NCBI RefSeq assembly: GCF_014253075.1
Contig: NZ_JACLZJ010000007.1
Location: 1 to 64,000 of the forward strand
Length of the DNA stretch: 64,000 bases
DNA from: Ochrobactrum sp. CM-21-5
GTDB lineage: Bacteria > Pseudomonadota > Alphaproteobacteria > Rhizobiales > Rhizobiaceae
Reading direction: 5' to 3'
Shown: positions 39,775 to 56,480 of the stretch, one piece after another
How positions within the stretch are numbered: the stretch's first letter is position 1
How the letters are laid out: each line of letters starts with the position of its first letter
The notes under the pieces: model-generated
What the model saw: only the letters and a program-made list of their open reading frames with translations
Database searches by the model: none
Told to the model about the DNA's origin: nothing
Made by a program: the position numbers and the translations under genes

Positions 39775-39784
39775 GGGGAACATA

Positions 39785-40435
39785 ATGCGCAGCTTCAATC
39801 TTCAAGATCTACTCGCATTGCTGGAAGCGCTGAAATGGACGGTAGCGCTTGTCGCCGTTGCACTGGCGCTTGGCGGTCCACTCGCATTGGCGCTTTCACT
39901 CATGCGCACAGGCAAAGCCCATGTTCCGCGCACTGTTTCCACCGCTTTTCTGGAAATCGTGCAGGGAATTCCACTGCTCGGATTGCTGATGTTCTTCTAT
40001 TTCGGCATTCCCGTTTTTCTCGGATTGGACGTGCCTGCCCTAGCGGCAGTCGGCATCGCTTATGCGATATATGCGGCGGCATTTCTGGGAGATATCTGGC
40101 GAGGTGGCATACAGGCAATCAAACATGCCCAGTGGGAGGCCGCCGCCTGTCTGGGCATCACACGGTGGCAGCAATTTCGCTATGTGATCGCGCCTCAGGC
40201 CTTTCGCATTGCCCTGCCCGCGACTGTGGGTTTCCTCGTACAGTTGATCAAGAATACATCCCTGGCTTCGGTTGTGGGCTTTGTCGAACTGGCTAGAGCC
40301 GGGCAAATTGCCAGCGCAGGAACCTTCCAGCCGCTTCTCATCTATTCGGTCGTGGCCGCAATTTATTTCGCCATCTGCTTCCCACTCACTTCATGGTCCA
40401 GAAAATTGGAGGCCAGACTTAATGGCGCTCGTTGA
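39785..40435 (+). CDS. Polar amino-acid ABC transporter permease (second subunit)
   Basis: This 216-residue permease of the same family has the EAA loop as DIWRGGIQAIKHAQWEAAACLGITR (about 100-125, two adjoining blocks). TSLASVVGFVELARAG follows. AGGGGGAAC precedes its ATG. It overlaps the ATPase gene by 14 bases, so the two are translated together. Confidence 0.93.
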   Translation: MRSFNLQDLLALLEALKWTVALVAVALALGGPLALALSLMRTGKAHVPRTVSTAFLEIVQGIPLLGLLMFFYFGIPVFLGLDVPALAAVGIAYAIYAAAFLGDIWRGGIQAIKHAQWEAAACLGITRWQQFRYVIAPQAFRIALPATVGFLVQLIKNTSLASVVGFVELARAGQIASAGTFQPLLIYSVVAAIYFAICFPLTSWSRKLEARLNGAR

Positions 40436-41150
40436 AATCAAGAATGTCCGCAAGAATTTCGGTCAGCTCGAGGTCTTGAAGGGCATATCCCTCGACATTT
40501 TCCAAGGAGAAATCGTCACCATCATTGGCAAAAGCGGTTCAGGCAAAAGCACGCTGTTGCGATGCATTAACGCGCTGGAACATATCAATGAAGGTGAAAT
40601 CCGCATTGACGGGCAACGCATGGCGACCGACATGCCCAACTTGCGCCAGATGCGACAGAAGGTTGGAATAGTATTCCAAGCCTTCAATCTTTTTCCGCAT
40701 ATGACGATTGAACGCAACGTCACTTTGGCGCCGGTTCTGACCGGCAAGACCAATGCGAAGGCAGCTCGGGCCTTGGCCCTCGACGTACTGCGACGGGTGG
40801 GACTTGCTGATAAAATCGACGCCTATCCCGAACAAATGTCAGGCGGACAACAGCAGCGTGCTGCAATTGCACGCTGTCTTGCCATGTCGCCGCAACTGAT
40901 GCTGTTCGATGAAGTGACGTCCGCGCTTGATCCCGAACTTGTCGGCGAAGTGCTGAAAGTTATGGAAGACATGGCGCGACAGGGGATGACAATGGTGCTT
41001 GTCACCCATGAGATGGGCTTTGCTCGCAATGTCGCGACCAAGCTGGTCTTCATGCATCAGGGGCGCGTCTGGGAGCAGGGAGCGCCCAAGGACCTTTTCG
41101 AAAACCCGCAAACACCGGAACTGAGAAGCTTTATCGGCGCGAGTGCCTGA
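40422..41150 (+). CDS. Polar amino-acid ABC transporter ATP-binding protein
   Basis: This 242-residue GlnQ/HisP-type ATPase has Walker A GKSGSGKS (about residue 36), Q-loop QAFNLFPHM, signature SGGQQQR (about 141), Walker B LMLFDEVTSALDPE and the H-loop VTHEM. The start at 40422 is inside the end of the permease gene. It drives the uptake system. Its usual position after the two permeases and the length are standard for the family. Confidence 0.95.
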   Translation: MALVEIKNVRKNFGQLEVLKGISLDIFQGEIVTIIGKSGSGKSTLLRCINALEHINEGEIRIDGQRMATDMPNLRQMRQKVGIVFQAFNLFPHMTIERNVTLAPVLTGKTNAKAARALALDVLRRVGLADKIDAYPEQMSGGQQQRAAIARCLAMSPQLMLFDEVTSALDPELVGEVLKVMEDMARQGMTMVLVTHEMGFARNVATKLVFMHQGRVWEQGAPKDLFENPQTPELRSFIGASA

Positions 41151-41193
41151 ACGGCATCGTTCGAAAAGAACAATCTACAAATGGGAGAATAAA

Positions 41194-41985
41194 ATGAAGA
41201 AATTGCGCACTATCTCAATCGTTGCGACCATGGTGACCGGGCTGATGACTGCCGTACCACCTGCCATGGCTGACAAGCTCGAAGACATTACATCAAGCGG
41301 AAAAATCCGTATCGGTGTTCTTCTTGATGCCGCCCCCTGGGGTTTCAAGGGAGCCGACGGCAAGGATACCGGTCTCGACGTCGCTCTTGCCGAACTAATG
41401 GCCAAGGATCTCAATGCCGATCTTGAACTTGTGCCGCTGACCGGCCAAAGCCGCATTCCAAGTCTTCTGGCCGACAAGATCGACGTCATGATCGCTGCGA
41501 CGGGCGCTACGCCCGAGCGTGCGCAGCAAGTCATGTTCTCCCAGCCATATGCTGCGGTAAACCTTGGCGTTTACGGCGCCAAGGGAACAGCCCAAACCGA
41601 AAATGTGGCAGACCTTGCTGGCAAACAAGTCGCTGTAGCGAAAGGGTCCACGCTTGATGTCTGGCTGACCGACAACGCGCCTGACGTGAAGGTTGTACGC
41701 TTCGAGGACACCCCTGCCGCTATCGCAGCCTATCTTGCCGGGCAAGTGGAAATGTTTGCCGAGAACAGCGCCATTTCCGTAAAAGTCAGTGAAGACAATC
41801 CCAACAAGGCAACAGATATTGTCTTCCTCATTCGCCAGTCCCCTGCTCACATTGCCGTTAAGCAGGGCGAGCAAAACCTGCTCAATTGGATAAATACGTT
41901 TATCTTTTACAACAGGCTTAGCGGCAAGCTTGGCGCGCTGCAGGAAGAATTCTTCAAGGAAAAACAGGACCTGCCAAATATGTAA
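41194..41985 (+). CDS. Polar amino-acid ABC transporter substrate-binding protein
   Basis: This 263-residue exported protein has a signal peptide (MKKLRTISIV..., cleavage near AMA-DK). Family 3 binding-protein blocks follow: SGKIRIGVLLDAAPWGF, DTGLDVALAELMAKDL, VPLTGQSRIPSLLADKIDVM (the amino-acid binding Arg), and KQVAVAKGSTLD. GGGAGAA lies before the ATG. It captures a small zwitterionic or acidic solute. The downstream deacylase gene suggests that the ligand may be an N-acyl amino acid, but the sequence alone does not prove it. Confidence 0.93.
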   Translation: MKKLRTISIVATMVTGLMTAVPPAMADKLEDITSSGKIRIGVLLDAAPWGFKGADGKDTGLDVALAELMAKDLNADLELVPLTGQSRIPSLLADKIDVMIAATGATPERAQQVMFSQPYAAVNLGVYGAKGTAQTENVADLAGKQVAVAKGSTLDVWLTDNAPDVKVVRFEDTPAAIAAYLAGQVEMFAENSAISVKVSEDNPNKATDIVFLIRQSPAHIAVKQGEQNLLNWINTFIFYNRLSGKLGALQEEFFKEKQDLPNM

Positions 41986-42013
41986 CTACAAGCATTGTCC
42001 ACATGATCTTTGC

Positions 42014-42035
42014 GGGTCGGAACTCGTTCCGGCCC
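42014..42035 (+). terminator. Intercistronic hairpin after the binding-protein gene
   Basis: GGGTCGGAA and TTCCGGCCC pair with one G-T pair around CTCG. There is no T-run. Like the hairpin in the TRAP operon it probably stabilises the binding-protein message or thins transcription into the next gene. Confidence 0.5.
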
Positions 42036-42142
42036 TGTAAATCTTCTATCCGGTTACGGCACAGCCTGATGGAAGGTCGGCATCACACGATTACGATATT
42101 TCTCACGGTGTGGAGCATCACGCTCCGGCAACAGGCAAACAG

Positions 42143-43147
42143 ATGCATACAGGACTGTTCCATTCGATCGATTTTTCCAGCAACGGCAAATTTGTTGACT
42201 ATCTGGGAATGCCGTTCTCAGTCGATCGCTCCCCCTATTACCATGTCAAAATTCCAATCTGCCGCATCAGGAACGGAAATGGTCCGCGTGTACTATTCAT
42301 GGCCGGCAATCATGGAGACGAATATGAAGGTGAAATTTGCCTGTCCCGGCTTATCCGCTTATTGAACCCGGAGGATATTCGCGGCGAGTTGACGATCTTG
42401 CCGTTCACCAATCTTCCAGCCGTTATGGCTGCGCGGCGTCGGTCGCCATTTGACGACGGAAATCTCAATCGCGCCTTTCCAGGCAACCTAGTCGGTTCGC
42501 CTACCCAACGTCTGGCGTATTTTCTCGAGCACGATCTCTTTCCGCGTCATGACGTGATTTTCGATCTGCATTCGGGCGGCACTTCCATGGCGCACCTCCT
42601 GACGGGCCTGATTGAGGAGTGTGACGATCCCATGCGCTTTGCCCGTGCGCAGGAACTGTTGAAAGCTATGGGGCTCCCCTTCGCCTTCATCGCCCGCAAT
42701 GGCGCCGATGCACCAACCTCCATGGCTGCCGCCGCCCGTGCAGGCGCAATCGGCATCAGCGGAGAGTTTGGCGGCGGCGGCACGGTAACGCCGGATTCGA
42801 TTGCGGGAACAGCACTGGCAATAAACAATCTACTTCAGGCAACCGGCCTTTGTGATGAGGCATTTCTACCAACCGGAAAAATCTCGGAAAGTACACAGCT
42901 TTTGCAGCTCAATTCTCACGATCAAGCCATTTACGCCACAAGACGCGGCTGGTTCGAACCAGCAGTCGATATCGGTGCCGATATAAAGGCCGGCGATCTG
43001 GCTGGCTGGTATCACGACTTTCAGCGGATCAATGAAGCTGAGGAGCCCCTTCATTTCCAGACGTCAGGAATCGTCATCTCGCGCCGCCTGCATACCGATT
43101 GCGAAGCAGGAGATTGCCTCATTCAGGTCGCAAGGAAAATCGAATGA
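42143..43147 (+). CDS. Succinylglutamate desuccinylase/aspartoacylase family deacylase
   Basis: This 334-residue zinc hydrolase has the M14-like motif MAGNHGDEYEGE (zinc His and Glu, about residues 55-66). It continues with NLNRAFPG (about 110) and the third zinc ligand in FDLHSGG (about 143), and ends in a beta-rich C-terminal domain. Members such as AspA, AstE and DoeB remove acetyl or succinyl groups from amino acids. The ATG at 42143 is chosen; a GTG at 42110 would add 11 residues. It lies about 157 bp after the binding protein, on the same strand. Confidence 0.87.
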   Translation: MHTGLFHSIDFSSNGKFVDYLGMPFSVDRSPYYHVKIPICRIRNGNGPRVLFMAGNHGDEYEGEICLSRLIRLLNPEDIRGELTILPFTNLPAVMAARRRSPFDDGNLNRAFPGNLVGSPTQRLAYFLEHDLFPRHDVIFDLHSGGTSMAHLLTGLIEECDDPMRFARAQELLKAMGLPFAFIARNGADAPTSMAAAARAGAIGISGEFGGGGTVTPDSIAGTALAINNLLQATGLCDEAFLPTGKISESTQLLQLNSHDQAIYATRRGWFEPAVDIGADIKAGDLAGWYHDFQRINEAEEPLHFQTSGIVISRRLHTDCEAGDCLIQVARKIE

Positions 43148-43310
43148 GTTACAGCAGATTACGTCATTACTCCTGAAAAAAGGCCGGTCCAGTCATGACT
43201 TTCTGCTAGGCCGCTTGGCTGTAGTGCGTGAAACGAGAAAGCGGGCTATTCTTTCAACCCGTTGCCGGAATAGTGATGTAGCAGGGCGTAACACGATCGG
43301 AGTGCGATAG

Positions 43311-44387
43311 ATGGAATTGCGGGCGGGCAGCAGCGTGGAACCGACATTCGACAGCGTCGTACGCGTGACCGGCAGTCAGGAAAAAGGCGATAGCGAACGA
43401 GCGCCTGTGTCCATCGAGGACGTGGCGCGGCTTGCCGATGTTGCACCGATTACCGTTTCCAGAGCAATACGCACGCCCGCAAAAGTAAGTCTTGAAAAAC
43501 GTGACCGCATTCAAAAAGCTATTCAAGTTACAGGCTACAGGCCGGACTCCATCGCAAGCGCGTTGCGTTCAGGGCGGACAAACATTGTTCTCGGCTTTGT
43601 CTCCAATATCTTTAGTCAGCAATTTGCGATTGCAATACGCGGGTGCGCCAAGGTGCTGGAGGAGTCGGGCTTCCAGTTTTTGATCGGGGAAACCGCCTAT
43701 TCCTATAAAAAGGAATCCGCGATTATCACCGATCTGCAACAGCTCAAGCCTGCTGCGGTCTTTTTCAGCGGGGTCATAGAGCTGGAGGAAAACCGGGAGC
43801 GTTTACGCAAACTCAATATCCCGATCATGGAGACATGGGCCTATCCGCGCGACCCCATTGATCTTCTTGTTGGAATTTCCAATACAGATGGCGGTGCTAT
43901 GGCTGCGCGCCATCTCGCGGAACGTGGCTATCGGCGTGTAGCGTTCATCGGCCGCGGCGGCGGGCGTGGCGCATTGCGCTATGAAGGCTTTGCGGCAGAG
44001 TGCAGCCGTTTGGGCTTGAAGATTGAACGAAAAATCATTTGCAAAGAAGTCCATGGGATCGAGGACGGACGCCGTGCATTTGCGGAGCTGCGGCACCAGA
44101 TGAAGGAAATCGAGGCAGTTTTCTGCGCAAACGATTTGATTGCGTCCGGCGTCTTCCTTGCTGCGCGCGACGAAGGTCTGCGCATTCCCGGCGATTTTGC
44201 GTTGATCGGTTTTGGCGATAATGACATGGCGGCAGCAGTCAGGCCCGGCATAACTACCATCGGCTTTGACAGTGAAGCATTGGGGCGCCATGCAGGCAAT
44301 ATGCTACTGACAAGCCTCAGAGGCGAAGTACTGGATCGTAAGATGCGTTGTATGGATCTGTCGATCAATGTGCGCGGCAGCACCTAA
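43311..44387 (+). CDS. LacI-family transcriptional regulator
   Basis: The 358-residue protein has an unusually long N-terminal lead of about 35 residues. The LacI helix-turn-helix follows (VSIEDVARLADVAPITVSRAIRTP in two blocks, hinge near RPDSIASALRSGRT). The periplasmic-binding-like domain contains GFVSNIFSQQFAIAIRG, CANDLIASGVFLAA, and GFGDNDMAAAVRPGITTI. It ends the operon on the same strand. The two LacI-like operators at 38883-38942 in front of the first permease are its likely targets. LacI proteins mostly sense sugars, so control of an amino-acid system is unusual. Confidence 0.92.
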   Translation: MELRAGSSVEPTFDSVVRVTGSQEKGDSERAPVSIEDVARLADVAPITVSRAIRTPAKVSLEKRDRIQKAIQVTGYRPDSIASALRSGRTNIVLGFVSNIFSQQFAIAIRGCAKVLEESGFQFLIGETAYSYKKESAIITDLQQLKPAAVFFSGVIELEENRERLRKLNIPIMETWAYPRDPIDLLVGISNTDGGAMAARHLAERGYRRVAFIGRGGGRGALRYEGFAAECSRLGLKIERKIICKEVHGIEDGRRAFAELRHQMKEIEAVFCANDLIASGVFLAARDEGLRIPGDFALIGFGDNDMAAAVRPGITTIGFDSEALGRHAGNMLLTSLRGEVLDRKMRCMDLSINVRGST

Positions 44388-44500
44388 CAGGTCAGCCCTG
44401 AATACAGAACGGGAGCGTCAATCCGATAGTATGGATCGACACCCCCCAAACGCCTTTCATGAAGGCTCAAACGGCACCGAAGCTCGGGCCGTTAACCAAA

Positions 44501-44845
44501 TTAAAGCGCTGCAACAGCCGTCATTTCAACACGCAAATCAGGATCGGCGAGCCGTGCTTCCACACAAGCGCGTGCCGGAGGGTTTTCGACATCGATCCAG
44601 GCGTCATAGACCGAGTTCATCGCATCAAAATCGACAATTGCAGGCAGAAAGACATTGACCGCAAGAAGCTTCGAACGATCTGTCCCTGCTTCCTTCAACA
44701 ATGCATCGATCTTGCCAAGCACATCACGGGTCTGCTCTTCAATGCCGGCTTTCCGGTCATTTGCGACCTGTCCGGCGATGTGAACGAGACCGCCATAGCT
44801 GACTGCCTGGCTCATCCGTGAACCCTTTTGATAGCGCATGATCAT
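44501..44845 (-). CDS. RidA-family enamine/imine deaminase
   Basis: This 114-residue RidA/YjgF/UK114 protein has QAVSYGGLVHIAGQVAND, EEQTRDVLGKIDALL, SKLLAVNVFLPAIVDF and the motif PPARACVEARL that carries the active-site Arg. RidA hydrolyses reactive 2-aminoacrylate and related enamines made by PLP-dependent dehydratases. The next gene upstream in the operon encodes such a PLP enzyme, so the pairing makes chemical sense. AAGGA lies before the ATG at 44845. It is the last gene of the minus-strand operon starting at 51644. Confidence 0.93.
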   Translation of the reverse strand: MIMRYQKGSRMSQAVSYGGLVHIAGQVANDRKAGIEEQTRDVLGKIDALLKEAGTDRSKLLAVNVFLPAIVDFDAMNSVYDAWIDVENPPARACVEARLADPDLRVEMTAVAAL

Positions 44846-44883
44846 ACTTGCATTCCTTGTCATGTTTTGGGGGCGTTTGGGCA

Positions 44884-46188
44884 TCAGCCGAAACAGGTGG
44901 GATAGGCGTTGATCACGGTCGCCGTCTCGTCGAGACCGTAAATCAATGAATGCCGGTCGAGGCATGTGCATGGATGCGAAATGCCGAATTCGATAACGTC
45001 ACCAATGGTGACATCAGCGTCCGCCGCACACTGGATGAATGCGTGTTGATCATTCAGTTTCTGCACTGTCGCATCTGCAAAGACATCGTACTTTTGACCA
45101 TTGCGATAGAGCGTGAGGGCCTTCGGAAAATCCTGATCGATAGCCACGTCACGCATGCCAAAACCACAAATCACCGTCTCGGGTTCCGGTCGCGAAAGCA
45201 CCTCCGCCCAAAGCCGCAGAGCTGGTCGAAATGCGCTGGAAGCTTGTGTTTCACCAAAGCCCCGGCGCGCATCGAGCTGCTTGATGCCGCGCTCGTAAAC
45301 ACCATGGTCGTGAAAGAAAATCGCGCCGCTGCGCAGCATAATCGTGAGGTTGCCGTCAATTTGCAGATGAGAAGCCCAGGCTGCCACCACACGATCGAAG
45401 AACAGCGAGCCACCCGCCGTCAAAAGCAATGACCGTTGCAGGCCGATGCGTTCGCGAATGAACCGATAAACCACCATTGCGTCGGAAAGGAGCGTATCGA
45501 TGCGCGCAAGCGTTTCGACGGGATCCGGAACACCGGCAGCGCCCTCATAGGCCGCGATACCAGCAAGTGTGATATTGGCGCATTCACCGGACAGGATCGC
45601 TTCCACGACAAGCTGAGCGGTTGCAGGGTTACGGGCCCCTGCCCGTGCAACGCCCAGCTCAACGAGCAATCCCAGTTTCGGCAAATCCGCCTGATCACGC
45701 CACACAGCGAGAAGACTTTCCGCCAGTGCGACCGAATCCACAAATACATACATCTCAGTATCGGGATACTGCGCCAGCAATCTGGCCAGTCGGCTGGCAG
45801 AGTTTGGTCCGCCAATCTCATTTCCCAGAATGAGTTTTCTGAAACCGGCCCGTAGCAACACCGCAGCCTGTCGCATGTCAGCGACCGTTGCGCCCCACGC
45901 GCCTTTATCGACCAACCGCTTTGCCAGAACCGGCGACATAGGCGTTTTCGCATGGGGCGCTATCTGCACGCCATGAGATTTCGCATAACCGAGCATAGCC
46001 ACTGCATTGGCATCAAAAGCCGCTTCATTGAGTGACATCAAGGGCAAGGCCATTTCACCATCGAAGGGTTTCCAGCCAAAATTCCCGATATTCCTCAGCA
46101 AAACCGGCGCATGGCCCGTTGGAAAACCACGCACACGGTCGTCAATATTGGTGTCGTTATCAGTATCGCGGAAACAAAGATCAGACAT
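44884..46188 (-). CDS. DSD1-like PLP enzyme (D-serine dehydratase/D-threonine aldolase-type, fold III)
   Basis: The 434-residue protein has an alanine-racemase-type barrel. The PLP-binding Lys lies in GVQIAPHAKTPMSP (about residue 80). The C-terminal D-ser_dehydrat domain carries the zinc motif ISHPCTC (about residue 411). Members dehydrate D-serine or threo-3-hydroxyaspartate, or cleave D-threonine, or act as amino acid deaminases. Because RidA follows directly, a dehydratase or deaminase reaction making an enamine is preferred. It begins three bases after the amidohydrolase gene ends. Confidence 0.88.
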   Translation of the reverse strand: MSDLCFRDTDNDTNIDDRVRGFPTGHAPVLLRNIGNFGWKPFDGEMALPLMSLNEAAFDANAVAMLGYAKSHGVQIAPHAKTPMSPVLAKRLVDKGAWGATVADMRQAAVLLRAGFRKLILGNEIGGPNSASRLARLLAQYPDTEMYVFVDSVALAESLLAVWRDQADLPKLGLLVELGVARAGARNPATAQLVVEAILSGECANITLAGIAAYEGAAGVPDPVETLARIDTLLSDAMVVYRFIRERIGLQRSLLLTAGGSLFFDRVVAAWASHLQIDGNLTIMLRSGAIFFHDHGVYERGIKQLDARRGFGETQASSAFRPALRLWAEVLSRPEPETVICGFGMRDVAIDQDFPKALTLYRNGQKYDVFADATVQKLNDQHAFIQCAADADVTIGDVIEFGISHPCTCLDRHSLIYGLDETATVINAYPTCFG

Positions 46189-46191
46189 GAA

Positions 46192-47130
46192 TTATCCTTG
46201 GTTGAAACCTGTTCGGTCCAACGCCAATCGGTAGGTTTGGTTTGCAGTTTCGAAGAAAAGTGCGCTTTGTTCCGCCATGCTGTAGCTGGCGACGATTTCG
46301 CGGAAAGTCGAATAAAGTTCGGGGAAAGACGCATGCAGTCCGGCCACAGGGAAATCGCTGGCGAACATGGAGCGTTCGACATCAAAACACGTAATGCAAT
46401 GCTCGATGATACCTCTCAGACTATCGATGCTCCAGTGTGGATCATAGGCAACCGGGTTGGAAATCTTGATGCGCAGGTTTTCTGCTTTTCCGAGCCGTTG
46501 CAGGCCGTCACGCCACAAGGCCATCCCCTCAGAGCTTCGATCCACCGGGCTGCCGCAATGATTGAGCACGAACATCGTGTTCGGAAAATCATGCAGCAGA
46601 CGTTCGGCTTCCGCCATCTGCCAGGGGAAAAGCATCAGATCGAACACCAGATCATGACGAGCAAGAGCGGTCAGTCCCGCACGCCATTGCGGATTACTCA
46701 TGAGCCCATCGCAAGCGGCGAAACTTTTCATCGGATCCGGATGCCAGCTGACAATATCGCGAATGCCCACGACATGGCTGTTCCGGGCTTCCTCGGCCAG
46801 CAGACCCGCAGCGTTTGGATCATCGAGAGGAACGCGCGCAACATAGCGCCGGGCAATATTGTGCCGCTTATCCAGACTGTCCAGCCAAGCTGTTTCTTCG
46901 GTTGGAAAGCGTTGATCCCAGCCCGCCTCGACATGTACGGATGCAACGATATTCTGCCCCCGAACATCAGCCAAATAACTATCCGGCATGTAATTGCGCT
47001 GGATCGCTGAAATACTGCCAGAAGCCACCTCACTTTCCGGCTCGCGCATGAGCCAGGGGTGGCGCTTCATTTCCAGATTCCACAGATGATGATGAGGGTC
47101 GATGACCGGCCCCGTATAAAGACGCGTCAT
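46192..47130 (-). CDS. Amidohydrolase-2 family protein (lactonase-like)
   Basis: This 312-residue TIM-barrel hydrolase begins VIDPHHHLWNLE, the HxH metal motif of the amidohydrolase-2 family (PF04909). It has MLFPWQMAEAERLLHDFP and the conserved FVLNHCGSP near residue 190. The metal ligand Asp lies in FASDFPVAG near residue 263. Relatives open sugar lactones (rhamnono- or fuconolactonases) or decarboxylate acids. It overlaps the ABC permease stop by four bases. In this operon it may process a lactone or amide form of the imported solute, but that is inference. Confidence 0.9.
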   Translation of the reverse strand: MTRLYTGPVIDPHHHLWNLEMKRHPWLMREPESEVASGSISAIQRNYMPDSYLADVRGQNIVASVHVEAGWDQRFPTEETAWLDSLDKRHNIARRYVARVPLDDPNAAGLLAEEARNSHVVGIRDIVSWHPDPMKSFAACDGLMSNPQWRAGLTALARHDLVFDLMLFPWQMAEAERLLHDFPNTMFVLNHCGSPVDRSSEGMALWRDGLQRLGKAENLRIKISNPVAYDPHWSIDSLRGIIEHCITCFDVERSMFASDFPVAGLHASFPELYSTFREIVASYSMAEQSALFFETANQTYRLALDRTGFNQG

Positions 47131-48092
47131 CGACGCGCCTCCCGCCCGGAAATCATCAGCAATCCGAGAATGAGCGAACCGAACAGGATGGAGCGCAGGC
47201 CCGGCGATGCATTGACCATCGTGATCAGCGCAGTGGTCGTAACGAGAAGAATAGCGCCGGGAATGGTTCCGGCATAAGTACCGCGCCCACCGAGAATGGA
47301 GGTGCCGCCGAGGACAACCGCCGCAATAGACAAAAGAACATATGGCTCACCGATGCCAACATAGCCTTGCCGGTTCATACCGAGGAGTACGATACCTGCC
47401 AGTCCGGAAAAAAATGCCGACAGAGCATAAAGCGCGACCGTATTGCGGTTGACGTTGATCCCTGACAACCGTGTAGCAACAGGGTTGGCACCCAGAGCCA
47501 GAAAGCTTGCGCCCGTTGGCGTCTTATGAAGCAGCATCAACACGACAGCAGTCACAACCAACCACAGAATGATGCTGGCCGGTACCCCGAAAGGTCGGGC
47601 CGATCCCAGAAAAATTGCGACAGGGTTATTAACCGATACTGCGCTGCCACCTGCCACGATGACCAGCAGTCCCTGAAGGAAAGTCGCCATAGCTAGCGTC
47701 ATGATAATGGGTGGTACGCGCAACCAAGCCGCTCCAATTCCATTTATAGCTCCAATAACAGCTGCAATAGCAAGAACCATAACGACGCCAAGCAGACCCG
47801 TCTGGTCCCAGTCAGGCGAGATCACCGGCAGCAGGATTGCTGTAACGGTCATCACCGCACCAACCGAAAGATCGATACCACCCACGATAATGACCAGTGT
47901 TTGTCCGGCGGCTACAATACCGATGATTGCAGCCAGTTCCAGCAGATAGCGCAAATGTCCATAAGCTCCGAAACCACGCAGGGTCAGACTGGCGATGAGC
48001 CAGACCAATGCAACCAGAAGCAAGGTCAGCAAGGGTGGGCTTCGCAACATACGACGCCCGATTGATAAGACTGCACTCATGATTTCCGCCAT
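47127..48092 (-). CDS. Sugar-type ABC transporter permease (RbsC family, second subunit)
   Basis: This 321-residue permease has about nine helices and the family segments VAAGQTLVIIVGGIDLSVGA (about 60-79) and VLGGTSILGGRGTYAGTIPGA (about 260-280). It overlaps the first permease by 16 bases and the amidohydrolase by four, so the genes form one tightly coupled message. With the other permease it forms the channel. Confidence 0.94.
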   Translation of the reverse strand: MAEIMSAVLSIGRRMLRSPPLLTLLLVALVWLIASLTLRGFGAYGHLRYLLELAAIIGIVAAGQTLVIIVGGIDLSVGAVMTVTAILLPVISPDWDQTGLLGVVMVLAIAAVIGAINGIGAAWLRVPPIIMTLAMATFLQGLLVIVAGGSAVSVNNPVAIFLGSARPFGVPASIILWLVVTAVVLMLLHKTPTGASFLALGANPVATRLSGINVNRNTVALYALSAFFSGLAGIVLLGMNRQGYVGIGEPYVLLSIAAVVLGGTSILGGRGTYAGTIPGAILLVTTTALITMVNASPGLRSILFGSLILGLLMISGREARR

Positions 48093-49039
48093 TTGCCTGC
48101 AATTTCCGGCAAAGCCACCGCACCAACGATAATCAGTCCTTGTGCGATATATTGCGCCACGGGAGGAAACCCCAAGAAAAACATCACGTTAATCATTACA
48201 GATAGAAGCAGGCTGCCGCAAATCGCACCGCGCATCGTGCCTTTTCCACCAAGAAATCCGACACCGCCCAACACGGCTGCGGCAATGGAATTGAGCGTGA
48301 ACGGCGTACCTATAACCGGATCGCCCGACCCTGTTTGGGCCGCCACGAACAGGCCTGCACAGGTAGCCAAAACACCCGACAAAGCAAAGGAGATGATCTT
48401 GACTTTTTCGACCGGAACGCCCGACCGATAGGCCCCTATCGGGTTTTCGCCCGCGGCGTAAATGCCAAGCCCCATTGGTGTGGCGAGGAACAGTTTCCAG
48501 CCTAGTATGATAAGCACCAGAATTATGAAAGCCGAAGGTGAATGACCGGCCAGGAAATCAGAAAACCAGTCAGGAATGAAACCGCCTGGTCTGGGTAGAA
48601 TAAGCAAGGCGATACCAGTGATGATGAACGATCCCGCAAGCGTTACGATAATCGCCGGCAAGCGCATGAACGCAACGATGGAACCGGTAAGCGCACCGAT
48701 AACAAAACCGCTCATGATAACAGCGACAACACCACCGAAAACACCAAAAACGCTCCCCATTGTGCTCGCCGCGATAACCGCCCCCAAACTCACGAGCGGT
48801 CCAATGGCGAGCGTTATCCCGCCATTCAACATCAAAAGCGCCTGCGCCATCGTCACCAGCGCCAAGGGCAACCAATTTTGAGTAAACTTGGAAAATCCTC
48901 CAACGCTTAGAATTCCCGGGAAAAGCCAGGCATAAAGCAAAACAAAAACACCAACGACGGCATAAAGCCCGATCAGTCCTCTGTTTCGGCTGCGTTGAAC
49001 GGACAGGTAGAGATTTCCGACCATACCCTGTTGCATCAA
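48077..49039 (-). CDS. Sugar-type ABC transporter permease (RbsC family, first subunit)
   Basis: This 320-residue permease has FTQNWLPLALVTMAQALLMLNGGITLAIGP (about 30-60, two adjoining blocks). VLGGVGFLGGKGTMRGAICG follows near residue 275. It overlaps the ATPase gene by four bases and the second permease by 16. RbsC-type transporters with two different permeases and a double-domain ATPase are common in rhizobia. The substrate is not necessarily a sugar, given the downstream PLP and RidA genes. Confidence 0.94.
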   Translation of the reverse strand: MMQQGMVGNLYLSVQRSRNRGLIGLYAVVGVFVLLYAWLFPGILSVGGFSKFTQNWLPLALVTMAQALLMLNGGITLAIGPLVSLGAVIAASTMGSVFGVFGGVVAVIMSGFVIGALTGSIVAFMRLPAIIVTLAGSFIITGIALLILPRPGGFIPDWFSDFLAGHSPSAFIILVLIILGWKLFLATPMGLGIYAAGENPIGAYRSGVPVEKVKIISFALSGVLATCAGLFVAAQTGSGDPVIGTPFTLNSIAAAVLGGVGFLGGKGTMRGAICGSLLLSVMINVMFFLGFPPVAQYIAQGLIIVGAVALPEIAGKWRKS

Positions 49040-50568
49040 ACTGCCTCTCTCGACGGTTTAAGGCCCATGGCCGCCCCTACGATTGCCTCTTCCGACAGGT
49101 TCCCATGTTCAAGTGTGGCGACTACGCGGCCCTCGCGGAAAACCATGACGCGATCACACAAGTGCACAAGCTCCGGCGTGTCGGAACTCAACAGGATGAT
49201 CAGTTTGCCTTCGTCAGCAAACCGGCGCAGCATCAGATAGATTTCCCGCTTGGTTTCGATATCGACGCCACGGGTCGGATCGTTCAGCAATAAAACAGTA
49301 GGCTCCAACGGAAGCCATTTAGCGAGCGCGACCTTCTGCTGGTTGCCGCCAGACAGCGCCTGAACCGGCCGTCTGGTATCCCCCTTGATCGTCAAGCGTT
49401 CAGCAAGTTTGGCAACAACACGCTGCTCGTTCGCCGTATCGCGCAGACCACACCGCGTATATCGGTCAAGCGATGGCAGAAGCAGATTTGACGCAATGGA
49501 ATGCGGCAGGACAAGCCCCTCTCGTTTCCGATCTGCAGGAACATAAGCAAGCCCCACAGAATTCGCGGCACCTACGGATTTGAACAAGCCGCTGCTTCCG
49601 CAAAGTTCCGCGTGACTGGCTGAGGTCGGCACGGCCCCGTAGAGGCCCAACAGGAAATCTTCCTGTCCTTGCCCGACCAGGCCGCCAATGCCGATGATTT
49701 CACCGGCATTCGCGTCCATATCGACATTCTGCACCATGCCCGCGCTCATGCCGCGAATGTGCAGCAGTCTTTCAGCAGCTGCACTGGTCCGCCATATCGG
49801 GAAAAGATCACCAGCGTCGCGCCCGACCATTAATCGAACCAGTTCTTCCGGATCAGCGCTCGACAACGACTGGTCTGCCGTCACGACGCCGTCTTTCAAC
49901 ACAGTGACATGAGAACAGAGCGAGCGAATTTCATTGAGCCGGTGCGAGATATAGAGAAGAGCGACGCCTTCATCGCGCAATTTGAGAACGAGCGATGACA
50001 GCACCCCCGCCTCATGCGCGGAAAGTGATGAGGTTGGCTCATCAAGAATAAGAACTCGGGGGTTGCGGAATAGCGCCTTGGCAATTTCAACCATTTGCCG
50101 ACGACCGAGCGATAACATGCCGACTGGTGTTTCCAGAGGTTCGGTCAGCCCGACGCGTTCGCAGACTGCCAGTGCCTCCTCATGAAGCGTCTTGTAATCA
50201 ATTAATCCAAACCGGCGCGGATAGGCGCCGAGCCCGATATTTTCTGCAATCGACAACTCCGGCGTTAGGCTGAGCTCCTGCTGAATGACCGCAATGCCAG
50301 CCTTGCGCGCCTCAGCCGGGTTTAATCTGGAAAGCGCGACGCTCTCCAGCACGATATCCCCACTGTCCGGCGACAAAGCGCCGGACAACAGATTGATGAG
50401 TGTGGACTTGCCCGCACCGTTTTCTCCAAGCAGCGCATGTACACGCCCAGGCCGCAAGGCGATACTGACGCCTTTTAGCACGGGATTACCAAAGAAACCC
50501 TTGAATACGTTGCGCGCTTCGAGCACCGGAGCCGCCGCATCCACAACAGGCTTAGACGAAACCTGCAT
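49036..50568 (-). CDS. Sugar-type ABC transporter ATP-binding protein (two nucleotide-binding domains)
   Basis: This 510-residue RbsA-type ATPase has two fused domains. The first has Walker A GENGAGKS (about residue 52), LSLGRRQMVEIAKAL and Walker B VLILDEPTSSL. The second has a degenerate Walker A (GIGGLVGQGQED), the signature LSGGNQQKVALAKWL, and Walker B LLLNDPTRGVD. This asymmetry is normal for the family. It lies nine bases after the binding-protein gene. Confidence 0.95.
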   Translation of the reverse strand: MQVSSKPVVDAAAPVLEARNVFKGFFGNPVLKGVSIALRPGRVHALLGENGAGKSTLINLLSGALSPDSGDIVLESVALSRLNPAEARKAGIAVIQQELSLTPELSIAENIGLGAYPRRFGLIDYKTLHEEALAVCERVGLTEPLETPVGMLSLGRRQMVEIAKALFRNPRVLILDEPTSSLSAHEAGVLSSLVLKLRDEGVALLYISHRLNEIRSLCSHVTVLKDGVVTADQSLSSADPEELVRLMVGRDAGDLFPIWRTSAAAERLLHIRGMSAGMVQNVDMDANAGEIIGIGGLVGQGQEDFLLGLYGAVPTSASHAELCGSSGLFKSVGAANSVGLAYVPADRKREGLVLPHSIASNLLLPSLDRYTRCGLRDTANEQRVVAKLAERLTIKGDTRRPVQALSGGNQQKVALAKWLPLEPTVLLLNDPTRGVDIETKREIYLMLRRFADEGKLIILLSSDTPELVHLCDRVMVFREGRVVATLEHGNLSEEAIVGAAMGLKPSREAV

Positions 50569-50576
50569 GATGCCGC

Positions 50577-51644
50577 TTACTGCCCCAGCAACTTATCGAA
50601 CAAAGCTCGATCATAATCCGAATAAACGTAGCCATCCGCCGGGAATTTGTCGGCGCGCGCCAGGTAGGCGTCGACATTGCTGTCGTCAATAACGGGAAGC
50701 GGAACCTTGATCGATTTCGGAACGTCCTTGCCTTCAAGAGCCTGCACAGCGGCATAAACGGAGAATGCACCAAGCCAATTGGGCTGCATAGTCGCCCACC
50801 CTTTCAAGCCTTTTTCCTTCCAAAGTTCCAGGAACTGACGGGCATTTTCACCCGTTATCGGCACCGGGTCCCGTCCCTGACGATCAAAGGCCAGAACCGC
50901 GCCGGCCGAAATGGCACCGCCCAGCGACAGGACGCCGTCGATTTCCGGATTGGCAAACAGCAAACTGGTCATCGCTTCCTGAGCGGGAGCCACGTTATAT
51001 TCCGTATTCGTCTCGGTAATGATCTCGATGTCCTTATTGGCATCGAGGACCGGCTGGGTGCCCTTGCGACGACCATCACTGACCGAAACCCCTGCGGGAC
51101 CGTTCATGATGATGATCTTGCCCTTACCACCCAGTTGGTCAACTATCCACTGAGCAGCCCGTTCGCCCCATTCGCCTGAGTCGGTGTTGATTTTTGCAGT
51201 CAGATTTTCTGTATCGACCAAGCTATCAAAGTTGATGACGGCGATACCCTTCTCGCAGGCATCAGCAATGACACGGTCGAGCGCGGAAGACGAGCCTGCA
51301 TCGATGACGATTGCATCGATATTGGCATCGATCATCGATTGAATTTGCTGAATTTGCGTCTGCGCATTGCCTTGCGCATCGGTGATCATCAGCTCCTTGA
51401 CCAGACCTTCCTTCTTTAGCTGCGCCACTTCATCGACAATCGTGGCTTCGGTCTGCTTCATCCAGGTCGGCACAGCATAGATATTTGCCCAGCCGACCGT
51501 GTAGGGCGCCTTGCGATCTCCTTTTACACAATTCGCAGCCGCTTCAGCCGAACCTGCTCCTGCCATGCACAGAAGCGCTGCGCCGCTCACTCCGGCCAGC
51601 AGCATACGGAAGCCCGATCCGGCTTTGGTCATAAAATGCATCAT
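50577..51644 (-). CDS. Sugar-type ABC transporter substrate-binding protein
   Basis: This 355-residue exported protein has a signal peptide (MMHFMTKAGS..., hydrophobic to about residue 34, cleavage near AEA-AAN). A Peripla_BP_4 domain follows, with TVGWANIYAVPTWMKQTEATI, IQQIQSMIDANIDAIVIDAGS, and INTDSGEWGERAAQW. The N-terminal pocket with its Trp/Tyr differs from classic ribose binders. GGAGGGGA precedes the ATG at 51644. It is the first gene of the seven-gene operon and faces the iclR gene across 207 bp. Confidence 0.93.
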   Translation of the reverse strand: MMHFMTKAGSGFRMLLAGVSGAALLCMAGAGSAEAAANCVKGDRKAPYTVGWANIYAVPTWMKQTEATIVDEVAQLKKEGLVKELMITDAQGNAQTQIQQIQSMIDANIDAIVIDAGSSSALDRVIADACEKGIAVINFDSLVDTENLTAKINTDSGEWGERAAQWIVDQLGGKGKIIIMNGPAGVSVSDGRRKGTQPVLDANKDIEIITETNTEYNVAPAQEAMTSLLFANPEIDGVLSLGGAISAGAVLAFDRQGRDPVPITGENARQFLELWKEKGLKGWATMQPNWLGAFSVYAAVQALEGKDVPKSIKVPLPVIDDSNVDAYLARADKFPADGYVYSDYDRALFDKLLGQ

Positions 51645-51685
51645 TGTCCCCTCCATCCAAATTTGACACATTCACAGCGCTATCA

Positions 51686-51725
51686 ATGTCTGCTATAATG
51701 TATATATGTCTGAATTATCAGACAT
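51686..51725. promoter_or_regulatory. Palindrome in the operon/iclR intergenic region, candidate IclR operator
   Basis: ATGTCTGAATTATCAGACAT (51706-51725) has perfect 8-base arms around ATTA. A further half-site, ATGTCTG, starts 20 bp away at 51686. The sites lie between the divergent ABC operon and iclR starts, next to TATAAT at 51694. Confidence 0.6.
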
Positions 51726-51851
51726 CGCAATCATAGAAATTATTTTGCTCTTGGCAAGCGAGAAACTGTTTGTGGGTTTCGAAACACACAATTGACAGCC
51801 GAGCTTGAGCTGCCCACAAAGAAACAGAGGCTGGAGACGATCGTAGAAACT

Positions 51852-52637
51852 ATGGATAAAATTCGAATAGAACCCACGGCGAAACGTTCACGCGGACTGG
51901 AGCGCGCTTTCGAGATTCTCGATTACCTGCGCGTGAGCCGCGCGCCAGCCAACCCCAACGAGATTGCCGCGCGTATCAAAGCTCCGCGCTCAACAGTCTA
52001 TGAGCTGGTCAACCTGCTGCTTAGCAATGGCGTTCTTGAGTATTCCGACAACGAGGGCCGTGTTTATCTGGGGCGGAAACTTTATTTCTTGGGCGCGGCT
52101 TACGAGGACCATTTTAACTTCATGCGCGATTGTGACCGGGCACTATCAAAAGTGGCGGAGCAAACACGGGAAACAGCCCAGTTTTGCATGCTGGACGAAA
52201 ACAAATATACCGTCGTGCGGATGCGTGAAGGAGCTCGGCCTTTTCGTATCTCATCGGATGTCGGGCAACGCGTTCCCATTCCCTGGACCGCGTCCGGAAG
52301 ACTTCTTCTGTCGCATCTCACTGATGCCGAGATTTTGTCCTTTATTCCGCCGGAGGATTTTCAGCTCCCCGATGGCCAATGGCTCGCCCCCGAGGTTTTC
52401 CTCGACGAGGTACATGCTGCACGGAAAGCCGGCGCCTTTACGTTTGACAGCATTGTCGACAGCTTTACCCATTGCTTCGCAGTCCCCGTTGAAAGCGACG
52501 ACGGTATATTCTGCGCGACTGTCTGCCTCGTCGCTCCGCGCGATGACGGCATTCGCAACCGCGACATGTATCTGCAATCTTTGCGGGAAGCTGCCCTCAA
52601 TATGAAAGGGAAAGTTTCTTCTTTTCAACGCGATTAG
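51852..52637 (+). CDS. IclR-family transcriptional regulator
   Basis: This 261-residue protein has the winged helix (RGLERAFEILDYLRVSRAP, then NEIAARIKAPRSTVYELVNLL, about residues 14-60). The effector domain follows (TAQFCMLDENKYTVVRMREG, then DVGQRVPIPWTASGRLLLS). The ATG at 51852 gives a normal start; a TTG at 51792 would add 20 residues. It is divergent from the seven-gene ABC operon and very likely controls it through the palindrome in between. It is convergent with the unassigned gene at 52668. Confidence 0.92.
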   Translation: MDKIRIEPTAKRSRGLERAFEILDYLRVSRAPANPNEIAARIKAPRSTVYELVNLLLSNGVLEYSDNEGRVYLGRKLYFLGAAYEDHFNFMRDCDRALSKVAEQTRETAQFCMLDENKYTVVRMREGARPFRISSDVGQRVPIPWTASGRLLLSHLTDAEILSFIPPEDFQLPDGQWLAPEVFLDEVHAARKAGAFTFDSIVDSFTHCFAVPVESDDGIFCATVCLVAPRDDGIRNRDMYLQSLREAALNMKGKVSSFQRD

Positions 52638-52667
52638 AACATTTCAGAAATATCGGCCGACTGCAAT

Positions 52668-53846
52668 TCAGCGCTTCAAAGCTGCACCAATCCACTCCAG
52701 TCGCTTTTGAGGAACAAGACCGTAATTGTAGAAATTTATGCCATCCACTCCGGCCCGCTTTCCTGCCTCGACGCGGGCAGTGAACTCCTCTTCTGACTTC
52801 ACAAGCGAGTAAAACAAGCTAAGACCAAGTCCGATATATTTGTCGCCGGGCAATCTAAAACGGGCATCGCGTATGGTTTGCTCGATCAGTTCCGCGCCCA
52901 TTTCGTAACAGCAAAGAATAATGCCATCACAGGCGGCAACGGCTTGTTCCAGATCAACGCCTCCCAGCCAGCCGTCCTTCAAATCAATCAGCACGATTTT
53001 ACTTGCCGGGTCTGCGGCTGCACGAATTTCACCGATCAGGCTGGTAACCGGCTCGCTCCGCCATTGCAAGAAAGCATGAAGCGACGACCAGCTGGCGAAG
53101 GCGGAAAGGCCGGCTTGCGGGAAATCGGCAAACTGTTTCTGCGGAATCTCCCGCTCGCACGCTTCCGCGATGAACTGTCTCACGACAGCCTGAGCATCAT
53201 CCGCATCAACACCAGCTGCTTTTGCCCGACTTTTGCAATGATCGCAAAAACATAAAGACATGAAAAAATCATCTTCGTCAGTGAGGCCAACACCATCCTT
53301 CTCGTGATGATGCTCATGGGCAAAACCCATGAAATTGATGCTTTCCAGTTCGACCATGTCCGGCTGATAACGTGTTGTAATGTCTGCGACTAACGTAACG
53401 ACATAATCGCGAGCAGCGGGGCTTGATGGGCAAAGATTGTAATAATTCGCATTGCCAAAGGCATTGCGGGTAACATGATCGGCATGGAGTTCTCCAAGGC
53501 GACTATTGTGCAGACCCACGGTCCAGCATGATACCCGCAATCCGTCTTTTCTTCGCCGCTCAATCAACTGGGCAAGTATATCCCCACGCTGGGCGCAATT
53601 TTTTGCAACAAGCGGACGTATCTTTTTTCCCTTCCATCGGTCGTCATCCGGTGTGTAATAAATAGTACCATCTTCAGGGAAATAAGCCTTCTGCAGAGGG
53701 CTGCGTGGCTGGAAGAAGCGACCAGCATGATAGGAAGTGGCAAGACTGATCGTATTACCGCCTACTTTCTCTCGAAGCTCAGAGCATACCGTGTCCAGCC
53801 CTAAATCCTGTATGTCCCACGGATAGGTCCAAAGCGATAACTGCAT
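52668..53846 (-). CDS. Unassigned protein, probable TIM-barrel hydrolase-like
   Basis: This 392-residue protein starts MQLSLWTYPWDIQDLG. It has no signal peptide. It resembles putative glycoside-hydrolase-like barrels, with aromatic segments (SCWTVGLHNSRLG, YYNLCPSSPAARDYV) and an acidic strand end (VELESINFMGFAHEHHHE). A Cys cluster, CFCDHCKSR, sits near residue 210 as in several putative glycosidases. Candidate catalytic acids are the Glu and Asp at strand ends. I cannot name the family. It lies between the IclR-controlled ABC operon and the carnitine genes, and belongs clearly to neither. Confidence 0.75.
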   Translation of the reverse strand: MQLSLWTYPWDIQDLGLDTVCSELREKVGGNTISLATSYHAGRFFQPRSPLQKAYFPEDGTIYYTPDDDRWKGKKIRPLVAKNCAQRGDILAQLIERRRKDGLRVSCWTVGLHNSRLGELHADHVTRNAFGNANYYNLCPSSPAARDYVVTLVADITTRYQPDMVELESINFMGFAHEHHHEKDGVGLTDEDDFFMSLCFCDHCKSRAKAAGVDADDAQAVVRQFIAEACEREIPQKQFADFPQAGLSAFASWSSLHAFLQWRSEPVTSLIGEIRAAADPASKIVLIDLKDGWLGGVDLEQAVAACDGIILCCYEMGAELIEQTIRDARFRLPGDKYIGLGLSLFYSLVKSEEEFTARVEAGKRAGVDGINFYNYGLVPQKRLEWIGAALKR

Positions 53847-53962
53847 AGTCTGTCCTCCTCATTTCCCCTGACCGAATAGCCAGCTCATGAATTGAGTGGA
53901 TTAACAAAATTGGAAGCTGGAGTTCAACTCCAAGCATCGCTCTCCGGTTACAAAATATGCTC

Positions 53963-55480: not shown

Positions 55481-55484
55481 GAAA

Positions 55485-56390: not shown

Positions 56391-56416
56391 GGTTGGCTCC
56401 CTCGATTTTTACCGAG

Positions 56417-56430: not shown

Positions 56431-56480
56431 ATTTATTGAGATTATCATTTTACGAAATCCATTTGGCGAAGAGCGAAACG

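What the first reader, a model, noticed from the sequence alone, without database searches (positions are those of the whole stretch)
44501..52637. Seven-gene operon joining a ribose-type ABC importer to DSD1-like PLP enzyme, RidA and an amidohydrolase
The gene ends are overlapped or separated by a few bases, so they act as one unit. The enzymes suggest ring opening or amide hydrolysis, then dehydration or deamination of a hydroxy-amino acid, with RidA clearing the enamine. I know no described pathway with this exact set.
Basis: inference. Interest (0 to 1): 0.72.

Follow-up and report, generated by a model that had tools for sequence, protein, structure and literature searches.

The report
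Cluster for eating oxidised amino sugars
A soil alphaproteobacterium carries a conserved gene cluster that most likely imports oxidised amino sugars, such as the acid or lactone left when chitin is oxidised, and strips off their acyl group and nitrogen to feed central metabolism; a differently built version is known from other bacteria.

Summary
The seven-gene operon is real, with a divergent IclR regulator. It is part of a larger conserved unit, about 39106-53846, that also holds a DoeB-like M14 deacylase, an amino-acid-type (PAAT) importer, a LacI regulator and a glycosidase-fold protein (GHL). Of 58 genome loci with the PLP enzyme, 34 carry the sugar importer (32 with the hydrolase, 29 with GHL) and 20 only the PAAT importer (0 and 0); the window has both. 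RidA is in 47 of 58 and M14 in 50 of 58.

The PLP enzyme is 30% identical to an OngC-type enzyme (glucosaminate deaminase of the oxidative chitin pathway, where the RidA gene is essential) and shares its catalytic Lys and HxC motif. In relatives M14 is replaced by D-aminoacylase (OngB family) or M20; two relatives have a sugar dehydrogenase and a lactonase of another fold; four have KDG kinase with PAAT importer and RidA. Best reading: catabolism of an (N-acyl) 2-amino-2-deoxy-aldonate or its lactone. The substrate is unproven; a small hydroxy-amino acid is the main rival. Works like the ong pathway, not a member of it: a new variant of a known kind.

The parts
50577..51671 (-). CUT2 (ribose-type) substrate-binding protein
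   Evidence: PF13407 174 bits; with the ATPase, 55% or more identical in 34 of 58 DSD1 loci
49036..50568 (-). CUT2 ATPase, two fused ABC domains
   Evidence: PF00005, 2 stretches; best NCBIfam AraG 453 bits, under its cut-off of 689
48077..49039 (-). CUT2 permease A
   Evidence: PF02653 103 bits
47127..48092 (-). CUT2 permease B
   Evidence: PF02653 114 bits
46192..47130 (-). PF04909 (COG3618-type) metallohydrolase, probably an aldonolactonase
   Evidence: PF04909 115 bits; best NCBIfam L-fucono-1,5-lactonase 96 bits, cut-off 400; H13, H15, H191 and D259 at least 97% conserved in 35 rows
44884..46188 (-). DSD1/OngC-like fold-III PLP dehydratase-deaminase
   Evidence: PF14031 and PF01168; K81 and H405/C407 at least 95% conserved in 59 rows and identical in the OngC-type enzyme
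44501..44845 (-). RidA enamine/imine deaminase (start inferred)
   Evidence: PF01042 90.5 bits; start read; R89 conserved in 48 rows; only 28% identical to OngD
51792..52637 (+). divergent IclR-family regulator
   Evidence: PF01614, PF09339
51707..51724 (.). palindrome, candidate operator; perfect copy also upstream of the Brucella tritici operon, in no other of 35 upstream regions
52668..53846 (-). TIM-barrel protein with glycoside-hydrolase-like fold (GHL); no obvious signal peptide by eye
   Evidence: AF2 pLDDT 85.9; nearest folds Cwp19, an alpha-L-fucosidase, PgaB C-terminal domain, GH42; in 29 of 34 CUT2 loci and 0 of 20 PAAT-only loci
43311..44387 (+). LacI-family regulator that goes with the PAAT form
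   Evidence: PF13377, PF00356; in 23 of 23 loci with PAAT and 3 CUT2 loci without PAAT
42143..43147 (+). M14 AstE/AspA-type N-deacylase, DoeB-like (start inferred from orthologs)
   Evidence: PF24827 160 bits; DoeB model 203.5 bits, cut-off 402.7; H68, E71, H154 at least 97% conserved in 51 rows
41194..41985 (+). PAAT amino-acid-type substrate-binding protein (start inferred; ORF from 41143)
   Evidence: PF00497 97 bits
40422..41150 (+). PAAT ATPase (start inferred)
   Evidence: PF00005; GlnQ model 316 bits, cut-off 379
39785..40435 (+). PAAT permease 2
   Evidence: PF00528
39106..39774 (+). PAAT permease 1
   Evidence: PF00528; ORF found

Best explanation
The unit takes up and catabolises an N-acylated 2-amino-2-deoxy-aldonic acid and its lactone, that is, an oxidised amino sugar such as N-acetyl-glucosaminate (GlcNAc1A). 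Proposed order, inferred: the CUT2 importer brings in a neutral form (lactone, or a glycoside that the GHL protein splits); the PF04909 hydrolase opens the lactone; the PAAT importer takes the open amino-acid form; the M14 enzyme removes the N-acyl group; the OngC-like PLP enzyme removes water across C2-C3 and releases an enamine; RidA speeds its hydrolysis to a 2-keto-3-deoxy-aldonate plus ammonia; KDG kinase and KDPG aldolase encoded elsewhere feed it into pyruvate. IclR and LacI control the two halves. Shown here: gene content, conserved linkage, conserved active-site motifs, other deacylases and lactonases in relatives. Inferred: substrate, order of steps, regulation. I put 0.85 on the PLP + RidA dehydration-deamination step, 0.55 on the aminoaldonate class, about 0.35 on GlcNAc1A itself.
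For: (1) The PLP enzyme is 30% identical to the OngC-type enzyme of an ong-type cluster in Pseudoalteromonas sp. CF6-2 (identified by gene content, the ACAM 620 sequence itself was not fetched), with the same Lys and HxC motif. In ACAM 620, OngC makes KDG and ammonia from GlcN1A and the RidA gene ongD is essential for growth on GlcNAc1A (PMC9537276, passages). (2) Every one of the 54 loci with either importer has an N-deacylase: M14 in 50; OngB-family D-aminoacylase in L057 and L085; M20 in L099 and L103. (3) Lactonase: in L052 and L053 (44% PLP enzyme) the order is CUT2 importer, SMP-30 lactonase, SDR, PLP enzyme, the usual dehydrogenase-lactonase-dehydratase order of oxidative sugar pathways (recalled); the SDRs pass the cut-off of a broad 'glucose 1-dehydrogenase' subfamily (222 and 218, cut-off 215). 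In Eleftheria a PF10282 lactonase is next to the PLP gene. A 40% relative of the window's hydrolase lies in an L-rhamnonate dehydratase cluster. (4) Four loci of one proteobacterial family have PAAT importer, RidA, IclR, OngC-like enzyme and KDG kinase together (two kinases tested, 380 and 388 bits, cut-off 400). (5) The GHL protein has a glycosidase-type fold, PgaB and Cwp19 among the nearest; of 8 haloarchaeal GHL regions read, 3 hold RidA (one also KDG kinase and KDPG aldolase) and 3 hexosaminidase, chitinase or GH20 genes. (6) The genome holds a KDG-kinase-like gene (289 bits, under the cut-off of 400) and eda (248 bits, over its cut-off).
Against: No KDG kinase was found in any of the 58 clusters or on the window's contig, as would fit a product that is already central, such as pyruvate. 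OngC also deaminates D-serine and D-threonine, so kinship does not fix the substrate, and 30% identity allows others. The window's RidA is only 28% identical to OngD. L052, L053 and Eleftheria, the loci with other lactonases, show no RidA and no deacylase in the stretches held. Six loci carry a fold-II PLP dehydratase of the threonine/EutB kind beside the PLP gene, which suggests small hydroxy-amino acids or both C2 epimers. The hydrolase misses the L-fuconolactonase cut-off (96 against 400). No LPMO in the genome. 2 of 8 haloarchaeal GHL regions show neither RidA nor amino-sugar hydrolases, and a fold match shows no function. The SDR model is broad. No chance model was run for the enzyme swaps.
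Confidence: 0.55

Rival explanations
1. The unit degrades an N-acyl or otherwise conjugated small beta-hydroxy-D-amino acid (D-serine, D-threonine or a close kin): the hydrolases free the amino acid, the PLP enzyme and RidA give pyruvate or 2-oxobutyrate.
For: The closest solved structure is called D-serine deaminase (3gwq, 180 bits); OngC takes D-serine and D-threonine; no KDG kinase in the clusters; fold-II dehydratases in 6 of 58 loci; N-deacylases in all 54 importer-bearing loci.
Against: A sugar-type importer and a lactonase-type hydrolase are hard to explain for serine; the SMP-30 plus SDR arrangement, KDG kinase in PAAT-type OngC clusters and the glycosidase-fold protein point to sugars.
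Confidence: 0.25
2. A hydroxyectoine-like or hydroxy-diaminobutyrate pathway: PAAT importer of the Ehu kind, DoeB-like deacetylase, then PLP dehydration of 3-hydroxy-2,4-diaminobutyrate.
For: The M14 enzyme is nearest to DoeB among NCBIfam models (203.5 bits; 6twl/6twm 159/157 bits) and the PAAT ATPase and permeases resemble Ehu proteins; EutB-like proteins in some relatives.
Against: All under the cut-offs (DoeB 402.7, EhuA 345.4, EhuB 190.9); the genome has an ectoine-type pair elsewhere, EutD 798 bits over its cut-off of 613 with an M14 gene next to it, and no EutD match on the window's contig; does not explain the sugar importer.
Confidence: 0.07
3. D-threo-3-hydroxyaspartate or the beta-hydroxyaspartate (bhc) route.
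For: The PLP enzyme matches the BhcC model and the regulator the BhcR model weakly.
Against: 64 bits against 690 and 56 against 350; solved hydroxyaspartate dehydratase only 27 bits; none of the conserved neighbours identified is another bhc gene, though bhc genes were not searched for as such.
Confidence: 0.03
4. Another lactone- and amide-containing plant or microbial compound (an opine-like or glycosylated amino acid) for which the same chemistry is used.
For: Both importers and the glycosidase-fold gene would fit a larger conjugate; the cluster is common on Rhizobium plasmids.
Against: None of the conserved neighbours identified is an opine or Amadori enzyme (not searched for as such); several haloarchaeal GHL contexts are of amino sugars.
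Confidence: 0.1

Closest known systems
ong cluster (oxidative chitin utilisation, Pseudoalteromonas prydzensis ACAM 620; PMC9537276, passages read)
   Same: Fold-III PLP 'D-amino acid deaminase', RidA and an N-deacylase together with an importer
   Different: Deacylase is M14 rather than D-aminoacylase (D-aminoacylase in 6 of 58 relatives); importers are CUT2 and PAAT ABC systems rather than an SSS symporter; PF04909 hydrolase and GHL protein, no GH20; IclR/LacI instead of RpiR; RidA only 28% identical; no KDG kinase in the cluster; Alphaproteobacteria, whereas the paper reports the complete pathway from Gammaproteobacteria and one betaproteobacterium
PAAT-RidA-IclR-OngC-KdgK loci L172, L174, L179, L181 (unnamed Pseudomonadota, one family; found here)
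   Same: PAAT importer, RidA and OngC-like enzyme together
   Different: No deacylase found nearby; KDG kinase in the cluster; no M14, no LacI
D-glucosaminate dehydratase of Pseudomonas fluorescens / Agrobacterium (recalled, PLP and Mn-dependent; not read here)
   Same: Would be the same reaction
   Different: No sequence or paper from a call to compare
DoeB (M14 N-acetyl-diaminobutyrate deacetylase of ectoine degradation)
   Same: Same family and zinc motif (motif roles recalled)
   Different: 203.5 bits against cut-off 402.7; genome has an ectoine-type locus elsewhere
L-fucono-1,5-lactonase and COG3618 aldonolactonases
   Same: Same Pfam family; HxH, His and Asp positions conserved in the window's clade
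   Different: 96 bits against cut-off 400; 59 bits to 4dlf

Membership tests
ong oxidative chitin pathway | OngC-type PLP deaminase | tested here: met
   Homolog, 30% identity, K81 and HxC shared; activity not tested
ong oxidative chitin pathway | RidA (OngD) in the cluster | tested here: met
   RidA family, 44501-44845; 28% identical to OngD
ong oxidative chitin pathway | OngB-type D-aminoacylase | tested here: not met
   No match in the window; M14 enzyme instead; D-aminoacylase in 6 of 58 relatives
ong oxidative chitin pathway | SSS importer, GH20 and KdgK in the cluster | tested here: not met
   No match in the window at 1e-6 and 0 of 58 loci for each at 1e-15
ong oxidative chitin pathway | LPMO in the genome | tested here: not met
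   PF03067 no match in the window's genome
ong oxidative chitin pathway | GlcNAc1A as substrate | not testable with these tools
   needs enzyme and binding assays
fold-III PLP D-serine dehydratase-like (DSD1) | PF14031 + PF01168, catalytic Lys, HxC metal motif | tested here: met
   (roles of the residues recalled)
BhcC 3-hydroxy-D-aspartate aldolase | NCBIfam NF045642 cut-off 690 bits | tested here: not met
   64.2 bits
CUT2 ABC importer | PF13407 binding protein, two PF02653 permeases, ATPase with two ABC domains | tested here: met
L-fucono-1,5-lactonase | NCBIfam NF052480 cut-off 400 bits | tested here: not met
   96.3 bits
DoeB of ectoine degradation | TIGR02994 cut-off 402.7 bits | tested here: not met
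   203.5 bits
PgaB-like glycoside hydrolase (GHL protein) | fold and catalytic residues | tested here: inconclusive

The most novel reading that the evidence does not exclude
Alphaproteobacteria, rhizobia above all, have a separate pathway for oxidised amino sugars that takes up two chemical forms of one compound by two unrelated importers (the lactone or glycoside by a sugar importer with a lactonase, the open amino acid by an amino-acid importer), has swapped deacylases and lactonases of different folds freely, and keeps the OngC-like PLP enzyme, in most clusters with its own RidA, so that RidA works there as a dedicated pathway enzyme and not as a housekeeping one.
Probability: 0.4. Interest if true: 0.65.

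Novelty: new variant of a known kind. Interest (0 to 1): 0.5.

Why it matters
It would extend the catabolism of oxidised chitin-type amino sugars from the Gammaproteobacteria in which it was described to soil and plant-associated Alphaproteobacteria, give functions to genes now called 'alanine racemase', 'amidohydrolase', 'aspartoacylase family' and 'hypothetical' on many Rhizobium plasmids, and offer a natural case in which a RidA protein is tied to one pathway, a role that the ong authors left open.

Tried and rejected
Rejected: 3-hydroxyaspartate route; ectoine route; reading the finding as only seven genes.

Led nowhere: none of nine paper searches listed a paper on this alphaproteobacterial set; searches list the ong work. 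PMC9007349 (find) holds no 'glucosaminate', 'RidA' or 'D-serine'. Palindromic operator: perfect copy only in the window and L056 of 35 upstream regions; in the window the pattern with up to two mismatches is no more common than chance, 3 found against 1.75 expected. PDB sequence search for the GHL protein found nothing convincing. The tree (45 rows) separates the window's clade from the OngC clade, but the distant outgroup rows fell in two places on long branches and the root is not usable; I draw no order of descent from it. Of the 47 places I fetched 40; not fetched: own genome, G067 (already held as L052), G404, G233, G324, two of G522. Two plasmid records and one more came without annotation. 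L085 has a 31% hydrolase relative, counted as absent at the 45% threshold; L062 has a 46% RidA, counted as absent at 50%.

The window's genes outside 39106-57446 were not studied.


Full report
Observation. The window carries on the - strand, from 51671 down to 44501, a ribose-type (CUT2) importer of four genes, a PF04909 hydrolase, a DSD1-like PLP enzyme and a RidA protein. The genes overlap or lie within 8 bases of each other, except RidA, which starts 38 bases after the PLP gene if its start is the ATG at 44845. A divergent IclR regulator (51792-52637) faces the operon.

Origin. The window lies in a 4.28 Mb genome of 28 contigs; the nearest named locus is Brucella tritici (formerly Ochrobactrum, a recalled synonym), 87% for the PLP enzyme and 98% for the binding protein. 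That the genome itself is of this genus is inferred. Within the genus, 2 of 35 genomes searched, the window's own included, have the binding protein, so the cluster is accessory. 111 of the 115 plasmid records that match the binding protein at 1e-60 are Rhizobium.

The unit is larger than the finding. In genome contigs, 58 loci encode a relative of the PLP enzyme by a pattern search for close relatives. Scored by fixed identity thresholds in all 58, 34 have the CUT2 importer; of these 32 have the PF04909 hydrolase and 29 the protein here called GHL (window 52668-53846). Twenty have only a PAAT amino-acid-type importer; of these 0 have the hydrolase and 0 have GHL. Three have both importers (L056, L065, L109), as has the window. 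Four have neither (L059, L061, L091, L113). RidA is present in 47 of 58 and the M14 deacylase in 50 of 58, in both forms. LacI goes with PAAT in 23 of 23 loci. In 8 of 34 loci of its cluster the hydrolase gene is on the other strand. The window's PAAT genes (39106-41985), M14 gene (42143-43147), LacI (43311-44387) and GHL therefore belong to the unit. R. johnstonii 3841 carries the CUT2 form on pRL10, A. fabrum C58 the PAAT form on its At plasmid.

The PLP enzyme. It has PF14031 and PF01168. Its best solved relative is 3gwq, called D-serine deaminase (180 bits); D-threonine aldolases, the hydroxyaspartate aldolase and D-threo-3-hydroxyaspartate dehydratase score 27 to 55 bits. The lysine of the PHAKT motif and the HxC pair of the SHPC motif are among the positions at least 95% conserved in 59 rows and are identical in the OngC-type enzyme. 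That HxC marks dehydratases and HxD aldolases is recalled. The OngC-type enzyme used here is that of an ong-type cluster of Pseudoalteromonas sp. CF6-2, recognised by its content (amino acid deaminase, RpiR, D-aminoacylase, RidA, symporter, sugar kinase, GH20); it is 30% identical to the window's enzyme. The sequence from strain ACAM 620 was not fetched. Passages of PMC9537276 report that OngC turns 2-amino-2-deoxygluconate into KDG and ammonia, that it also takes D-serine and D-threonine, that OngB removes the acetyl group first, and that deletion of each of the genes for KdgK, OngD (RidA), OngB and OngC abolished growth on GlcNAc1A, the role of OngD being left open. The same paper (passages) reports the complete pathway from Gammaproteobacteria and one betaproteobacterium, using at least four co-occurring homologs as the test. 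The window's RidA is of the RidA family but only 28% identical to OngD.

The deacylase slot. The window's M14 protein is closest to DoeB among NCBIfam models (203.5 bits, cut-off 402.7; 6twl 159 and 3cdx 173 bits), with its His-Glu-His positions conserved in 51 rows. Where M14 is missing from a cluster with an importer another N-deacylase is found: an OngB-family D-aminoacylase directly after RidA in L057 and L085, an M20 acetylornithine-deacetylase-like enzyme near the PLP gene in L099 and L103. So 54 of 54 importer-bearing loci have an N-deacylase. L091, without importer, has an M20 5.9 kb away; L059, L061 and L113 have none. The D-aminoacylase also stands beside M14 in four loci (L060, L063, L064, L112).

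The lactonase slot. The window's hydrolase has H13, H15, H191 and D259 conserved in 35 rows, and its only solved relative at 1e-5 is 4dlf (59 bits; recalled as an L-fuconolactonase of COG3618). A 40% identical relative in Caulobacter rhizosphaerae lies between an SDR gene and rhaT in an L-rhamnonate dehydratase cluster. Two 37-38% relatives lie at the end of CUT2/TRAP importer operons; a fourth record had no annotation. In L052 and L053, whose PLP enzyme is 44% identical, the hydrolase is absent and the order is binding protein, CUT2 permease, ATPase, SMP-30 lactonase, SDR, PLP enzyme (binding protein and permease read in L052); the SDRs pass the cut-off of a broad 'glucose 1-dehydrogenase' subfamily (222 and 218 bits, cut-off 215). 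In Eleftheria terrae a PF10282 lactonase precedes the PLP gene. No RidA and no deacylase was found in the held stretches of L052, L053 and Eleftheria, so these show the lactonase link but not the full set. Three lactonase-type families, counting the window's, thus accompany this kind of PLP enzyme. No chance model was run for these swaps.

Wider survey. Of 398 proteobacterial genomes, 46 have a match at 1e-30 to the L052 enzyme. Of 47 places I fetched 40; 39 are of the OngC type: RidA within 9 kb in 32, D-aminoacylase in 27, symporter in 16, KDG kinase at 30% or more in 11, GH20 in 9, PAAT importer in 6, M14 and CUT2 in 0. Seven of the 39 have no RidA nearby (L156, L165, L169, L171, L173, L190, L191). 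Four loci (L172, L174, L179, L181) have PAAT importer, RidA, IclR, OngC-like enzyme and KDG kinase in a row without a deacylase within reach; the two kinases tested score 388 and 380 bits against the KdgK cut-off of 400. This is the closest parallel to the window's PAAT form and suggests that the product is KDG.

Downstream steps. No KDG kinase was found in the 58 clusters, and no PfkB kinase on the window's contig. In the window's genome the best KdgK match has 289 bits, under its cut-off of 400, and one eda has 248 bits, over its cut-off. There is no LPMO_10 match, so the organism would be a scavenger.

Against the reading. OngC kinship at 30% does not fix a substrate, and OngC itself is broad. 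Fold-II dehydratases of the threonine/EutB kind lie beside the PLP gene in 6 of 58 loci (L092-L095, L099, L103), which would fit small hydroxy-amino acids, or the two C2 epimers of an aminoaldonate. The lack of KDG genes in the clusters fits a pyruvate-forming route as well. The ectoine reading is weakened by a separate EutD-type gene (798 bits, cut-off 613) with its own M14 gene on contig C12.

What is in print. Nine paper searches in a library of open PubMed Central papers found the ong papers (PMC9537276, and PMC12017989: passages; PMC11653859: listing only) and no description of this alphaproteobacterial set; subscription journals are mostly not held, so this is weak evidence of novelty. 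The old biochemistry of D-glucosaminate dehydratase (PLP and Mn, Pseudomonas and Agrobacterium) is recalled, not read.

Verdict. A real, conserved and enlarged unit; most likely a pathway for oxidised amino sugars, working like the ong pathway but not a member of it, since several defining parts were tested and not met. New variant of a known kind; interest 0.5. On re-checking, facts were mended (RidA is not constant in all relatives; the haloarchaeal counts were split) and the odds left as they were.

Noticed in passing
53963-57446: Neighbouring genes of carnitine type: a carnitine 3-dehydrogenase/thioesterase fusion over its NCBIfam cut-off (790 bits, cut-off 592), a BKACE enzyme and a GbdR-like AraC regulator; not part of the conserved unit.
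   Followed up: no
52668-53846 and L124, L125, L131-L134: The GHL family spans Alphaproteobacteria and haloarchaea and in some haloarchaea sits with RidA, creatininase-type hydrolase and enolase-superfamily genes or with NagZ/GH18/AnmK, a possible archaeal amino-sugar-acid pathway.
   Followed up: partly
L092-L095, L099, L103: A fold-II PLP dehydratase (threonine/EutB-like) lies close to the fold-III enzyme; in L092-L095 there is also a second, 33-36% M14 gene on the other strand. Perhaps one pair for each C2 epimer.
   Followed up: partly
51707-51724: Perfect palindrome TGTCTGA-N4-TCAGACA between the IclR gene and the operon, shared only with the Brucella tritici locus among 35 upstream regions.
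   Followed up: partly
L128 3236-3628: The RidA of the Agrobacterium fabrum C58 PAAT cluster is 45% identical to OngD, whereas the window's RidA is 28% identical to OngD, so two kinds of RidA serve these clusters.
   Followed up: partly
L112 13015-18550: A second, 31-40% CUT2 importer with a phosphotriesterase-family (PF02126) gene lies next to the cluster.
   Followed up: no
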